From assembly GCA_903871905.1 (NCBI GenBank), contig CAIQIV010000137.1, forward strand, positions 1 to 32,980: a stretch of 32,980 nucleotides of DNA, in the 5' to 3' direction. This document shows positions 24,898 to 29,751 of the stretch, piece by piece. Source of the DNA: an uncultured Chloroflexota bacterium. GTDB taxonomy: Bacteria > Chloroflexota > Anaerolineae > Anaerolineales > UBA4823. Within the stretch, counting starts at the first letter, position 1. Each line of letters starts with the position of its first letter. The notes beneath the pieces are model-generated. The model saw only the letters and a list, made by a program, of their open reading frames with translations, made no database searches and was not told the DNA's origin. The position numbers and the translations under genes are program-made.

Positions 24898-24920
24898 CTT
24901 CCATTTGATAGGGTTTGCTG

Positions 24921-26297
24921 ATGAGCGATTTTGTCAATCTGGAAACTGAGAGCGTTTCCTCTGCGGAACTGTTGCCCCAAAGCCGGGAAGCGGAGGAAGC
25001 GGTCATTGGATCGGTTCTGATCAACCCGGAGGTGTATTTCGACGTTGCCCAGTTTCTGCGTGGGGATGATTTCTTTATCCATCGTCATCGCTGGATCTGG
25101 GAGGCGATCACCCGCCTGCACGAGCGTCGTGTTCCCCTCGACTTGTTAACCGTCACCGAGGAACTGGATCGGCAGGGCCAGCTGGCGGAAGTCGGTGGCG
25201 CTGCTTACCTGGCAGCCCTGATCAACCAGGTCCCTTCAGCCCTGCATGCTCAATCCTATGGAAAGATCGTCGAAGAGAACTCCATCCGCCGCAAGATGCT
25301 GACTGCGGCCAATGAGATCGCCCGCCTGGCGCATAAACAGGATGTGACCATTGAAATGGTCATGGATGACGCCGAGAAGGCTATCTTTGGCGTCAGCGAA
25401 CGGCGCCTGACCCACGATCTGCAGCCGATTAAAAGCGTCCTGAGCAGTTACTATGACCGCATCGATCAGCTTGCTGGTCGCCCCGAAGAGCTGTTCGGTG
25501 TGCCTACTGGTTTCATTGACCTGGATAAGCTCCTGCAGGGGCTTCACCCCTCCGATTTCCTGATTGTTGCCGGCCGCCCGGGTACCGGAAAGACAGCCTT
25601 CATGCTCTCCATCGCCAAGTTTGCCGCTCAAACCCACCGCAAGCATGTGGCCATCTTTTCCCTGGAAATGTCCAACGAGCAGCTTGTCCAGCGGTTGATC
25701 TCCCAGGAAACGCGCATCGACTCGCAGCGCCTGCAGACTGGCAAGCTGGAAGAAAAAGAATGGCCGCTCTTCACCCATGCCATCGAAGTCCTGGGCGATA
25801 CCCAGATCTACCTGGATGATACGCCGTCCCTGACCCCCATCCAGCTGCGCACCAAGTGCCGCCGCCTGCACCTCGAGGTGCAGCTTGACCTGGTCCTGCT
25901 GGATTACATCCAGCTCATGTCCAGTGGATCGCGCTCTGAGAACCGGGTGCAGGAGGTGTCCTATATCTCCCGCAGCCTCAAGCAGCTGGCGCGCGAGCTG
26001 AACGTGCCTGTCCTTGTGGCTGCCCAGCTCTCTCGGGCGATTGAGCAGCGCTCGGATAAGGAACCGCAGCTTTCGGACCTGCGCGAGTCAGGCTCCCTGG
26101 AGCAGGATGCGGATATTGTCATGTTCATCCACCGGCCGGAGATATATGACCGGGACACGGATAAACCCGGCCTGGCTCAGATCAAGGTTGCCAAGCACCG
26201 CCATGGCCCGGTTGGCGAGGTTCAGCTGGTCTTCCTCGGCCAGTATACCAAATTCGAGAATGCCGCCACTCACCATGTCGATCTACGGAATATGTAA
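24921..26297 (+). CDS. dnaB: Replicative DNA helicase DnaB
   Basis: A 458-residue hexameric helicase that unwinds DNA at the replication fork. The N-terminal primase-interacting domain opens LPQSREAEEAVIGSVLINP. The RecA-like domain carries Walker A GRPGTGKT (218-225), then FSLEMSNEQLVQRLI, Walker B LVLLDYIQLM and LRESGSLEQDADIVMFIHR with the arginine-finger region. Length is normal and there is no intein. The start is the ATG at 24921 with a weak TAGGG upstream; a TTG two codons earlier is less likely. The next two genes encode a DnaD-domain protein and a helicase-loader-like ATPase, making this a probable primosome operon. Confidence 0.96.
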   Translation: MSDFVNLETESVSSAELLPQSREAEEAVIGSVLINPEVYFDVAQFLRGDDFFIHRHRWIWEAITRLHERRVPLDLLTVTEELDRQGQLAEVGGAAYLAALINQVPSALHAQSYGKIVEENSIRRKMLTAANEIARLAHKQDVTIEMVMDDAEKAIFGVSERRLTHDLQPIKSVLSSYYDRIDQLAGRPEELFGVPTGFIDLDKLLQGLHPSDFLIVAGRPGTGKTAFMLSIAKFAAQTHRKHVAIFSLEMSNEQLVQRLISQETRIDSQRLQTGKLEEKEWPLFTHAIEVLGDTQIYLDDTPSLTPIQLRTKCRRLHLEVQLDLVLLDYIQLMSSGSRSENRVQEVSYISRSLKQLARELNVPVLVAAQLSRAIEQRSDKEPQLSDLRESGSLEQDADIVMFIHRPEIYDRDTDKPGLAQIKVAKHRHGPVGEVQLVFLGQYTKFENAATHHVDLRNM

Positions 26298-26315: not shown

Positions 26316-27002
26316 ATGCTGACTTTTAATGGCTTCCCCGATGGCCGCATGCCCCTGACCCAGGTGCCCTCCCAGTTTTTTCGCGACCTGCTCCCGGCTA
26401 TCGATAACCTGCCTGAGCTGAAGGTGGTTCTCTACCTGGTCTGGCGCATTGGCCTGATGGAAGGCGAGTACCGCTTCCTGCGCCTCAGGGATTTTGTACA
26501 GGATGAAAAATTCATGAACGGGATGGGGGCCTCTCCAGATGAGGCGCGGCTGAACCTGGAAATCGGCCTGGAACAGGCTGTGCGCCAGGGCATTTTCCTG
26601 GAGCTCAAGGCCCCGCTTGCCTCTGGCGACCTGGCCAGCTTTTTCTTCCTCAACGCCCCGAAGGGCAGGGCGGCGCTCCAGGCCTTTCAATCTGGACGCT
26701 GGTCGCCAGCCCCCAACCTGCCGCTCTCTACGGACCACCTGGTGGAGACCTCCAATGTTTACCGGCTGTACGAGGAGCATGTTGGCCCGCTGACCCCACT
26801 GATCGCTGATGCGCTGCGCGAGGCAGAAGAGACCTATCCGTATTCGTGGATTGAAGAGGCCTTTCGCATTGCGGTGGAGAACAATAAGCGAAACTGGCGG
26901 TATATTCGCGCCATTCTGGAACGATGGCAGAGGGAAGGTAAGGATGACAAGCAGGATCGACGAGACTCTGCGGAAGCTCGCCGCAAATACGCCGAGTGGT
27001 AA
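26316..27002 (+). CDS. DnaD-domain replication initiation/primosome protein
   Basis: A 228-residue protein. The C-terminal DnaD domain (about 148-212) reads VYRLYEEHVGPLTPLI, EETYPYSWIEEAFRIAVENN and WRYIRAILERWQREGK. The N-terminal part is winged-helix-like, with PELKVVLYLVWRIG and ASFFFLNAPKGR. DnaD in Bacillus remodels DNA and helps load helicase; the domain also occurs in phage replication proteins. The tail ([18 protein letters not shown]) is basic and charged. The ATG follows the dnaB stop by 18 bases, with GGGAG upstream. Its last 59 bases overlap the next gene, which points to coupled translation. I assign the domain confidently but not orthology to Bacillus dnaD. Confidence 0.87.
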   Translation: MLTFNGFPDGRMPLTQVPSQFFRDLLPAIDNLPELKVVLYLVWRIGLMEGEYRFLRLRDFVQDEKFMNGMGASPDEARLNLEIGLEQAVRQGIFLELKAPLASGDLASFFFLNAPKGRAALQAFQSGRWSPAPNLPLSTDHLVETSNVYRLYEEHVGPLTPLIADALREAEETYPYSWIEEAFRIAVENNKRNWRYIRAILERWQREGKDDKQDRRDSAEARRKYAEW

Positions 27003-28386
27003 CCAGCCTGCAGCGCAGCCCCAGGATACAGCCGCCTCCCCGGTTGCGACCGCCAGGCAGTTCAGTCCGGGGGATCCGGAATGCCCGGTGTGCCATGGCC
27101 TCGGCTATGTGCGCTATGAACTGCCGGTTGGTCATCCTGAGTTTGGCAGGCTGCACGATTGCGCCTGCCGCCAGGCGCAGATCCAGCAAAAGGTCTACCA
27201 GCGCCTGTTTGCCTTCAGCAACCTGTCTGAGCTTGCCCACCTGACCTTTGACAATTTCTTGCCGCGCGGCCGGGTTGGCGTGATGCCCCAGCATGCTTCT
27301 TCCCTGGAATTTGCTTATAACCAGGCCTCCATCTATGCCCGTACTTTAAAGGGCTGGCTGGTGCTCTTGGGGGGCTATGGGGTTGGTAAGACCCACCTGG
27401 CTGCCGCGGTGGGCAACTTCGCCGTCAGCATGGGGGTCCAGGCGCTTTTTGTGACCGTGCCCGATCTGCTTGACTCGCTGCGCACTTCTTTTTCTGACCA
27501 GGAAAATCCATATGCTGAGCGCTTTGAGCAGATTCTCTCGGTCCCCCTCCTGATCCTGGATGATTTTGGTACGCAGAATGCCACCCCCTGGGCGCAGGAA
27601 AAGCTGTTCCAGATCATCAACCACCGCTATATCAACAAACTGCCCCTGGTGGTGACCTCAAATATGCCCATGAACAGCATCGAAGGCCGTATCCGCTCCC
27701 GCCTCGAGGACCCGGAACTGGTGCATATTGTGCGTATCCAGTCCCAGGATTATCGCCGTCCCATCCTGGATGCCGGGCATCATGAGCTGTCTTCCCTGCC
27801 GATGCTGACCGGGCGCACCTTTGCCCATTTTGATTTACGCAAAGGGGAGGGCCTGGAGGCCCAGGACTTGCAGAGCCTGGAGCGAGCTTTTGCTGTTGCC
27901 CGCGAATATGCCGAAGCCCCGCGCGGCTGGTTGGTCTTCATTGGGCCTTATGGCTGTGGAAAGACCCACCTGGCTGCTGCGATTGCCCATTACCGCCTCG
28001 ACCTGGGAGACCAGCTGGTGTTTATCAGCGTTCCGGATTTAATGGATCACCTGCGCGCCACCTTCGCCCCAACCAGCATGGTCAGCATGGACCGCCTGTT
28101 TGATGAGGTGCGCACCATCCCCCTGTTATTCTTAGATGACCTTGGAGCCCAATCCCCGACCCCCTGGGTCCAGGAGAAGCTGTACCAGCTCTTCAACTAT
28201 CGTTATATGGCTGAACTGCCGACGGTTATCACCACCTCCAGCTTGAAGAAAGACCTCGACCAGCGCATCTTGAGCCGCATGGATGATCAGCGCTTGTGCC
28301 GGGTTTCTGCAATCACCGTACCCTCCTACCGCGGCCTGACGCCGCCACAGAAAAGCCCGCCGGTGCGCAAGCGCCGCTCTGGTTAG
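26944..28386 (+). CDS. Helicase-loader-like protein with two tandem DnaC/DnaI-type AAA+ ATPase modules
   Basis: A 480-residue protein. A flexible N-terminus leads to a cysteine cluster, CPVC and later CAC (about 43-76), resembling the zinc-binding head of DnaI. Module 1 has Walker A GGYGVGKT (143-150) and Walker B LLILDDFG (Asp206-Asp207). Module 2 has Walker A GPYGCGKT (334-341) and Walker B LLFLDDLG (Asp398-Asp399). Each is followed by a matching WxQEKL and a sensor-like TSN or TTSS strand. Both sets of catalytic motifs look intact. Single-module relatives load DnaB onto DNA. The start is the ATG at 26944 with GAGGGAAGG upstream; the longer frame from 26809 reads through the DnaD gene. Context next to dnaB supports a loader role. 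Confidence 0.88.
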
Positions 28387-28426: not shown

Positions 28427-29479
28427 ATGAGCACATACAGCAGCGAACTGCCTCTCCCTGCACATTACGATGCCGCCCGTGTCGGTGAAGTCTGGAAAGT
28501 TCAATATGAGACATTGGCGGCTGAGGCCCGCTTGTGGGCTGATCTGCATCATATTGAGCCGGAGCACAAGGACCGGATCAGGGTTGCCCTGATTGCTGTA
28601 GATGTGCAGAATACCTTTTGCATCCCCGGCTTTGAGCTGTATGTTGGGGGGCGCTCCGGGCAGGGCGCGGTCCAGGACAATCGCCGGTTGGTTGAATTTG
28701 TTTACCGCAACCTGCACAACATCAGCCAGATTTCGATCACCCTGGACACACACCAGGCGATCCAGGTCTTTCACTCCATCTATCTGGTCAACTCGCGTGG
28801 TGAACATCCCTCTCCGTTGACCCAGATCACAGTGGAGATGATTGCCCGTGGGGATTGGAGTTTCAACTCGGATATTGCCCCCAGCCTGGGGATCTCCGCC
28901 CAATATGGACAGGAGCAGCTGCTCTACTATGTCCAGCAGCTCCATGTCCAGGGGAAATATGACCTGACCATCTGGCCTTACCATGCTATGCTTGGCAGCA
29001 TGGGGCATGCCCTGGTTCCGGCCTTTGAGCAGGCGGTCTTTTTCCATACCCTGGCACGTTACAGCCAGCCTGAGATCCTGGTGAAAGGCGATGACCCGCT
29101 GACCGAGAGTTATTCTGCCGTTGGTCCTGAAGTGCTTACGGATAGCTATGGGGAGCTCATTGGTCACCGGCGGCAGACCCTCTTCCAGAAAGTCTTGCAT
29201 TATGATGTGGTGATCATTGCCGGGCAGGCAAAGAGTCACTGCGTGGCTTGGACCGTTGAAGACCTGCTGCACGACTTCCATCGCAAGAAGCCGGATCTTG
29301 CGCACAAGATCTATTTGCTGGAGGACTGCTCCTCGCCGGTGGTTGCCCCGGGGGTGGTTGATTTTACCGAGGCTGCAGACGCCGCTTACCAAAGGTTCGC
29401 TGCTGCTGGGATGCACATTGTGCGCTCCACCGATCCCTTTTGGGATTGGCCCGGTATCGCTCCATTATATTCGGATTGA
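28427..29479 (+). CDS. Isochorismatase-superfamily cysteine hydrolase, long form
   Basis: A 350-residue member of the isochorismatase/nicotinamidase superfamily. The putative catalytic triad is Asp59 in [10 protein letters not shown], Lys220 in ILVKGDDP and Cys272 in [12 protein letters not shown]. The usual family length is 180-210, so this protein has an N-terminal extension of about 50 residues and a longer middle region ([14 protein letters not shown] is seen there). Substrates in the family include nicotinamide, isochorismate and carbamoyl compounds; which applies here cannot be said. The ATG is preceded by AGGAAAG. It follows the loader gene by 40 bases and could share its transcript. 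The next element is the independent promoter at 29491. Confidence 0.85.
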
Positions 29480-29490
29480 ACCGGTCATTA

Positions 29491-29519
29491 TTGACATTTG
29501 GCTGATTCTATGTGATACT
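29491..29519 (+). promoter_or_regulatory. Strong sigma-70-type promoter with extended -10
   Basis: Perfect TTGACA (29491-29496), a 17-base spacer and GATACT (29514-29519), with TG at 29511-29512 forming an extended -10. Transcription would start near 29526. It is the best promoter match in the window and reads into a region without a conventional gene. Confidence 0.8.
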
Positions 29520-29598
29520 TACTCCATCAGGTGGCTGGTTCTAAAGACCTCTGCCTGTGTTTGAGATGCCATCCCATAAAAGAGGAGGTGTTGCCGAG

Positions 29599-29655
29599 AT
29601 GTACGATGATAGTACCAAACGCAGCGCTGCGGCAGCCCTCCTCCTGATGAAGTAG
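29599..29655 (+). CDS. Possible 18-residue peptide or leader peptide
   Basis: ATG to TAG encodes MYDDSTKRSAAAALLLMK. AGGAGGT (29583-29589) lies 9 bases upstream, the strongest Shine-Dalgarno in the window. The second half is four Ala then three Leu and Met. The last third lies inside a stable hairpin and a terminator follows 18 bases after the stop, a leader-peptide arrangement. The short hydrophobic tail could also be membrane-active. No family is recognised. Confidence 0.4.
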   Translation: MYDDSTKRSAAAALLLMK

Positions 29656-29672
29656 GGAGCCGCAGCGCGCAG

Positions 29673-29705
29673 GAAGCCGTCCAACCGGGCGGCTTCTTGT
29701 TTGTC
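29673..29705 (+). terminator. Rho-independent terminator of the small transcript
   Basis: GAAGCCGTCC (29673-29682) pairs with GGGCGGCTTC (29687-29696), ten pairs including one G-U, around an AACC loop. The tail TTGTTTGTC follows. It lies 47 bases before the 29752 start codon. Confidence 0.85.
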
Positions 29706-29751
29706 TGTGTCCCATCCAGTTGAACCATCCTCACAATTAAGGAGAGTTGAA

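What the first reader, a model, noticed from the sequence alone, without database searches (positions are those of the whole stretch)
29491..29705. Near-consensus promoter, strong SD, 18-codon ORF, hairpin and terminator: undescribed small transcript
The best promoter in the window drives only about 180 bases before a strong terminator. The region holds nothing but a tiny ORF with a near-perfect Shine-Dalgarno. The peptide ends in AAAALLLMK, and the hairpin covers its last codons and stop, as in leader-peptide attenuators; the downstream genes (YbjN-like, CPBP protease) are not amino-acid biosynthetic. Alternatives are an abundant small RNA, or a small membrane peptide handled by the downstream CPBP protease.
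Basis: partly seen in the sequence, partly recalled or inferred. Interest (0 to 1): 0.62.

Follow-up and report, generated by a model that had tools for sequence, protein, structure and literature searches.

The report
Self-gating short-ORF RNA of Chloroflexota
The spot holds an unannotated small RNA gene, kept across the bacterial class Anaerolineae and probably much of its phylum, in which the ribosome-binding site, a segment inside a 15-18 codon reading frame and a segment after the stop codon compete to pair; its purpose is unknown and I found no earlier description of it.

Summary
Region 29491-29708 is a stand-alone small gene, usually single-copy, found in 276 of 400 genomes of its order and 185 of 346 of its class, with weaker but plausible relatives elsewhere in Chloroflexota. 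No Rfam family matches. Conserved parts: near-consensus promoter, extended Shine-Dalgarno (S), a 14-22 codon ORF (179 of 181 distinct members), a segment E inside the ORF, a stop codon, a segment T right after it, and a terminator. E pairs with S or, alternatively, with T; covariation supports both helices. Without T, S:E (start site closed) is the predicted fold in 86 of 86 representatives; with T, E:T is about 9 kcal/mol more stable. The peptide is not what is conserved: at least three members read E in another frame, yet the stop stays in place. Downstream genes differ and lie on either strand, so it is not a leader; there is no antisense promoter and the peptide is not hydrophobic, so it is not a type I toxin. 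Best reading: a short mRNA that gates its own translation as it is transcribed. What this achieves for the cell is not shown.

The parts
29491..29519 (+). promoter: TTGACA, 17 nt, GATACT with extended TG
   Evidence: 89% of members have a site of score >=10, 3% of shuffles; spacing 17 nearly fixed
29526..29567 (+). 5' leader with a weak, sequence-variable hairpin (transcript start inferred)
   Evidence: modest support: 69% of members fold better than shuffles
29568..29574 (+). element U, GC[CT]ATCC, conserved; may pair weakly with the Shine-Dalgarno
29582..29595 (+). element S: extended Shine-Dalgarno GAGGAGGTGTTGCC
29599..29655 (+). short ORF, MYDDSTKRSAAAALLLMK, stop TAG
   Evidence: open to the hairpin in 179 of 181 distinct members; the other frames in 70 and 0 of 179
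29624..29643 (+). element E, GCGCTGCGGCAGCCCTCCTC: pairs with S or with T
29659..29668 (+). element T, GCCGCAGCGC: 3' arm, beginning 4 nt after the stop codon
   Evidence: 98.1% of cells paired, all 10 pairs with changes on both sides
29669..29708 (+). intrinsic terminator: covarying stem plus T-rich tail
   Evidence: 175 of 179 members, 24 of 358 shuffles

Best explanation
A stand-alone, probably abundant, short mRNA that controls its own translation with a three-strand switch. As the RNA is made, E pairs with S and closes the ribosome-binding site (supported in silico). When T has been transcribed, E moves to T, because E:T is more stable, and S is released, possibly still weakly held by U (energies computed; kinetics inferred). 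A ribosome then loads on the extended Shine-Dalgarno and reads 15-18 codons through E. When it reaches the stop codon it should cover T, while the 5' part of E has already left it and can close S again, so that loading is limited to about one ribosome at a time (inferred from spacing only). What is selected is the switch and the act of translation with its fixed stop position, more than the peptide (supported by frame changes). The use to the cell is not shown; my best guess is that the RNA's fate or activity depends on ribosome loading, so that it reports it.
For: Conservation in 276/400 genomes of the order and 185/346 of the class, nearly always one copy. ORF open to the hairpin in 179/181 members, start ATG in 176, stop close to T; the other two frames open in 70 and 0 of 179. 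E is read in other frames in L235, L219 (GTG start) and L236 with the stop still in place. E:T: 98.1% of cells paired, changes on both sides in all 10 pairs, 0/500 shuffles. S:E: pair 33-94 is a standard pair of five kinds in all 67 sequences; own S:E duplexes beat swapped ones, -23.95 vs -21.09 kcal/mol, 0 of 20000 permutations. A mutual-information scan with no assumed structure ranks E:T pairs and the S:E pair 24-63 at the top, all 100% canonical. RNA ending before T folds as S:E in 86/86; full length E:T -38.8 vs -30.0 kcal/mol with T blocked. Downstream gene on either strand, neighbours not conserved. Spacing: start to E arm median 22 nt, stop to end of T median 17 nt.
Against: No expression, ribosome-profiling or probing data. 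Most genomes are metagenome assemblies. The permutation tests ignore relatedness. Part of the S:E signal could come from E being conserved for T, though pair 24-63 lies outside the E:T arm. S keeps some pairing (with U) in the E:T state, so how far it opens is uncertain. Pseudoknots were not modelled. A purpose for gating a non-conserved peptide is missing. L206 and L017 lack an obvious intact ORF (L206 may be a sequencing error).
Confidence: 0.6

Rival explanations
1. Dual-function regulatory RNA: in the E:T form the loop shows CCUCC (an anti-Shine-Dalgarno sequence) and binds the start sites of other mRNAs; translation of the ORF switches this activity off. Compatible with the cis switch, but the output is in trans.
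For: Stand-alone transcript with promoter and terminator; the loop is CCCTCCTC or TCACCTCC, close to the 16S 3' end GGATCACCTCCTTTCT.
Against: In distant members E covers GGTGATGCCCAT instead and shows no CCUCC, so the exposed anti-SD is not the constant feature; no targets were searched for.
Confidence: 0.22
2. The peptide itself is the product and the RNA structure only sets its level.
For: ORF kept in 179/181; recurrent MDxSS...SAVASP pattern.
Against: The C-terminal pattern follows from E being an RNA element; in L235, L219, L236 and in other classes the peptide differs while the RNA plan stays; the last codons vary freely.
Confidence: 0.11
3. Leader-peptide attenuator of the downstream genes, sensing serine (AGU) decoding.
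For: AGT is 84% of Ser codons before E although it is the rarest Ser codon (8.8%) in flanking genes; the geometry resembles attenuators.
Against: Downstream genes differ and lie on either strand; the terminator is a separate stem and is not seen to exchange with E or T; AGU is part of an NGUAGU nucleotide motif in which the first codon changes amino acid.
Confidence: 0.04
4. Type I toxin mRNA with start-site sequestration, like AapA or Hok.
For: Stand-alone short mRNA, anti-SD inside the ORF, transient structure (PMC6733600).
Against: No antisense promoter above shuffles (7.59 vs 7.58) and no hydrophobic peptide.
Confidence: 0.03

Closest known systems
AapA/IsoA and hok/Sok type I toxin mRNAs
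   Same: stand-alone short mRNA; anti-SD segments, one inside the ORF, form transient hairpins during transcription (PMC6733600)
   Different: no antisense promoter, no hydrophobic toxin; here the completed RNA is predicted to release the start site, not to close it
Amino-acid leader-peptide attenuators (e.g. Rfam Phe_leader, RF01859)
   Same: short ORF over competing helices followed by a terminator; Phe_leader is the best but sub-threshold Rfam hit (26.2 bits, cut-off 55)
   Different: no conserved downstream gene; the competing helices concern the ORF's own start, not the terminator
Dual-function small RNAs
   Same: small RNA gene with a short, apparently translated ORF
   Different: no trans partner known; the ORF overlaps the switch and the peptide is not conserved

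Membership tests
Any Rfam 15 family | score above gathering threshold | tested here: not met
   no match; best Phe_leader 26.2 of 55 bits
Leader-peptide attenuator | conserved regulated gene downstream in cis | tested here: not met
   either strand, 73 downstream clusters among distinct members
Leader-peptide attenuator | terminator competes with an antiterminator | tested here: inconclusive
   the terminator stem is independent of E and T in the consensus fold; alternative terminator pairings were not tested systematically
Leader-peptide attenuator | run of regulatory codons | tested here: inconclusive
   AGT enriched, but as part of an NGTAGT motif
Type I toxin mRNA | antisense RNA gene over the mRNA | tested here: not met
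   antisense promoter scores equal shuffles (sigma-70 type only)
Type I toxin mRNA | hydrophobic membrane peptide | tested here: not met
   mean GRAVY 0.11
Type I toxin mRNA | toxicity on expression | not testable with these tools
   needs an experiment
Dual-function small RNA | independent promoter and terminator plus translated short ORF | tested here: met
   (translation inferred from conservation)
Dual-function small RNA | base-pairs with target mRNAs in trans | not tested
   no target search was made

The most novel reading that the evidence does not exclude
A phylum-wide RNA whose job is to sense ribosome loading: a near-maximal Shine-Dalgarno, an internal segment resembling the 16S rRNA 3' end and a post-stop competitor make each RNA molecule admit about one ribosome, and that state is read out by something other than the peptide.
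Probability: 0.25. Interest if true: 0.9.

Novelty: new variant of a known kind. Interest (0 to 1): 0.74.

Why it matters
An apparently ancient, strongly promoted small gene of a large, mostly uncultured bacterial phylum has been missed by protein and RNA annotation alike. It combines a translated ORF without a conserved peptide with a covariation-supported three-strand switch on its own start site. If confirmed, it offers a compact natural system for testing how transcription, RNA folding and ribosome loading compete, and possibly a new kind of ribosome-load sensor.

Tried and rejected
Rfam at gathering and permissive thresholds gave nothing. The cis-leader idea was rejected by neighbour orientation and turnover. 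The type I toxin idea was rejected by antisense-promoter and hydrophobicity tests. Pairing of U with GAUAGU or with the stop region was considered by eye and dropped for lack of covariation. Weak model hits in family f85 (L246, L249, L252) were not counted as members: poor S:E pairing and the ORF ends inside a terminator. Two viral-contig pattern hits look like chance and show how rare such an S:E arrangement is by chance. The 16S gene was not found in the window's own genome; a same-family genome ends GGATCACCTCCTTTCT. Literature searches found no description; Chloroflexi-1 (RF01698, named in PMC2864571) is a known motif of the phylum and no Rfam family matches here.

Full report
What is there. 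The region has a near-consensus promoter (29491-29519), an extended Shine-Dalgarno (GAGGAGG, 29582-29588), an 18-codon ORF (29599-29655), a hairpin with arms 29624-29633 and 29659-29668, and a terminator (29669-29700). The transcript folds better than shuffles, z -4.8. No Rfam family matches.

Conservation. A DNA search found the element in 24 of 41 genomes. A covariance model (R1) found it in 276 of 400 genomes of the order and 185 of 346 of the class, nearly always once. R1 found nothing outside the class among the phylum genomes sampled. A broader model (R2) gave weak hits outside the class. Of 18 such loci read in full, about 15 show the same plan: ATG 8 nt after the Shine-Dalgarno, a short ORF, S:E complementarity and, in many, a TTGACA promoter. 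Those E-values are rough, so the extension to the phylum is probable, not proven. One further likely member outside the class, in G850, was found by pattern alone.

The ORF is real. Among 181 distinct members 179 keep an ORF from a start 5-15 nt after GGAGG to the hairpin; starts are ATG in 176 and GTG in 3; the +1 frame is open in 70 and the +2 frame in none. Stops fall mostly between 10 nt before T and 1 nt into it. In L235, L219 (GTG start) and L236 the E element is read in a different frame, so the peptide is different, yet the stop is in the same place. Selection therefore acts on being translated and on where translation ends, more than on the peptide.

The switch. E is complementary both to S and to T. 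For E:T, 98.1% of cells are paired and all ten pairs have changes on both sides, against a mean of 4 in shuffles. For S:E, 93.8% of cells are paired, with 18 two-sided changes at one pair; cells paired and covariation score exceed all shuffles, while the number of pairs with two-sided change does not (143 of 500 shuffles reach it). In the first family all 20 members match GTGTTG with GCA[AG]CC or GT[AG]ACC, and GTGATG with GCATCC. Own S:E duplexes are stronger than swapped ones by 2.9 kcal/mol (0 of 20000 permutations), own E:T by 9.2. A mutual-information scan without any assumed structure puts E:T pairs and the S:E pair 24-63 at the top, all fully canonical. In several distant members T repeats the S sequence almost letter for letter (for example GGTGATGCCC in L254), which makes the competition explicit.

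How it should behave. If the RNA ends before T, the predicted fold is S:E in 86 of 86 representatives. With T, the E:T state is more stable by 8.8 kcal/mol (sd 4.3) and is the minimum in 83%. Thus S should be closed while the RNA is being made and opened when it is complete. S also matches the 16S 3' end well (mean duplex -19.2 kcal/mol; GGATCACCTCCTTTCT). The E arm begins a median 22 nt after the start, and T ends a median 17 nt after the first base of the stop. From usual ribosome footprints (general knowledge) an initiating ribosome would leave E:T largely intact, while a terminating one would cover T and leave the 5' part of E free to close S. That step is inference.

What it is not. Neighbouring genes are not conserved: 73 clusters of downstream genes, strand 77 + and 96 -, and the window's own neighbours recur in no other locus compared. 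Hence no cis leader. No antisense promoter and no hydrophobic peptide: not a type I toxin, although the metastable anti-SD logic is shared with AapA mRNAs (PMC6733600).

Open points. The codon AGT is 84% of the Ser codons before E but only 8.8% of Ser codons in flanking genes; whether this is a pause site, a protein site or a linker that avoids pairing is unknown. The function of the RNA is unknown. All evidence is computational and mostly from metagenome-assembled genomes.

Noticed in passing
window 29599-29623 (codons 3-5 of the ORF) and homologous positions in members: Conserved NGTAGT/AGTAGT motif: AGT makes 84% of Ser codons before E though it is the rarest Ser codon in flanking ORFs (8.8%); reason unknown.
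   Followed up: partly
L246 974-1052, L249 1005-1079, L252 967-1043: Another tiny gene in family f85: 11-12 codon ORF after a strong Shine-Dalgarno, whose stop codon lies in the loop of a strong terminator hairpin. Probably unrelated.
   Followed up: partly
window 26809-28386: One ORF with two IstB/DnaC-like AAA+ stretches in tandem, downstream of a replicative-helicase-like ORF (24915-26297).
   Followed up: no
window 28427-29479: 350-aa ORF upstream of the element has no Pfam match at E 0.001 although it reads like a cysteine hydrolase; a similar protein lies upstream in L014 by eye.
   Followed up: no
L268 5644-5709, minus strand: Viral contig with GGAGGTGATG...ATG...GCATCACCTCC: an apparent ORF start that may be closed by an anti-SD inside the frame.
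   Followed up: partly
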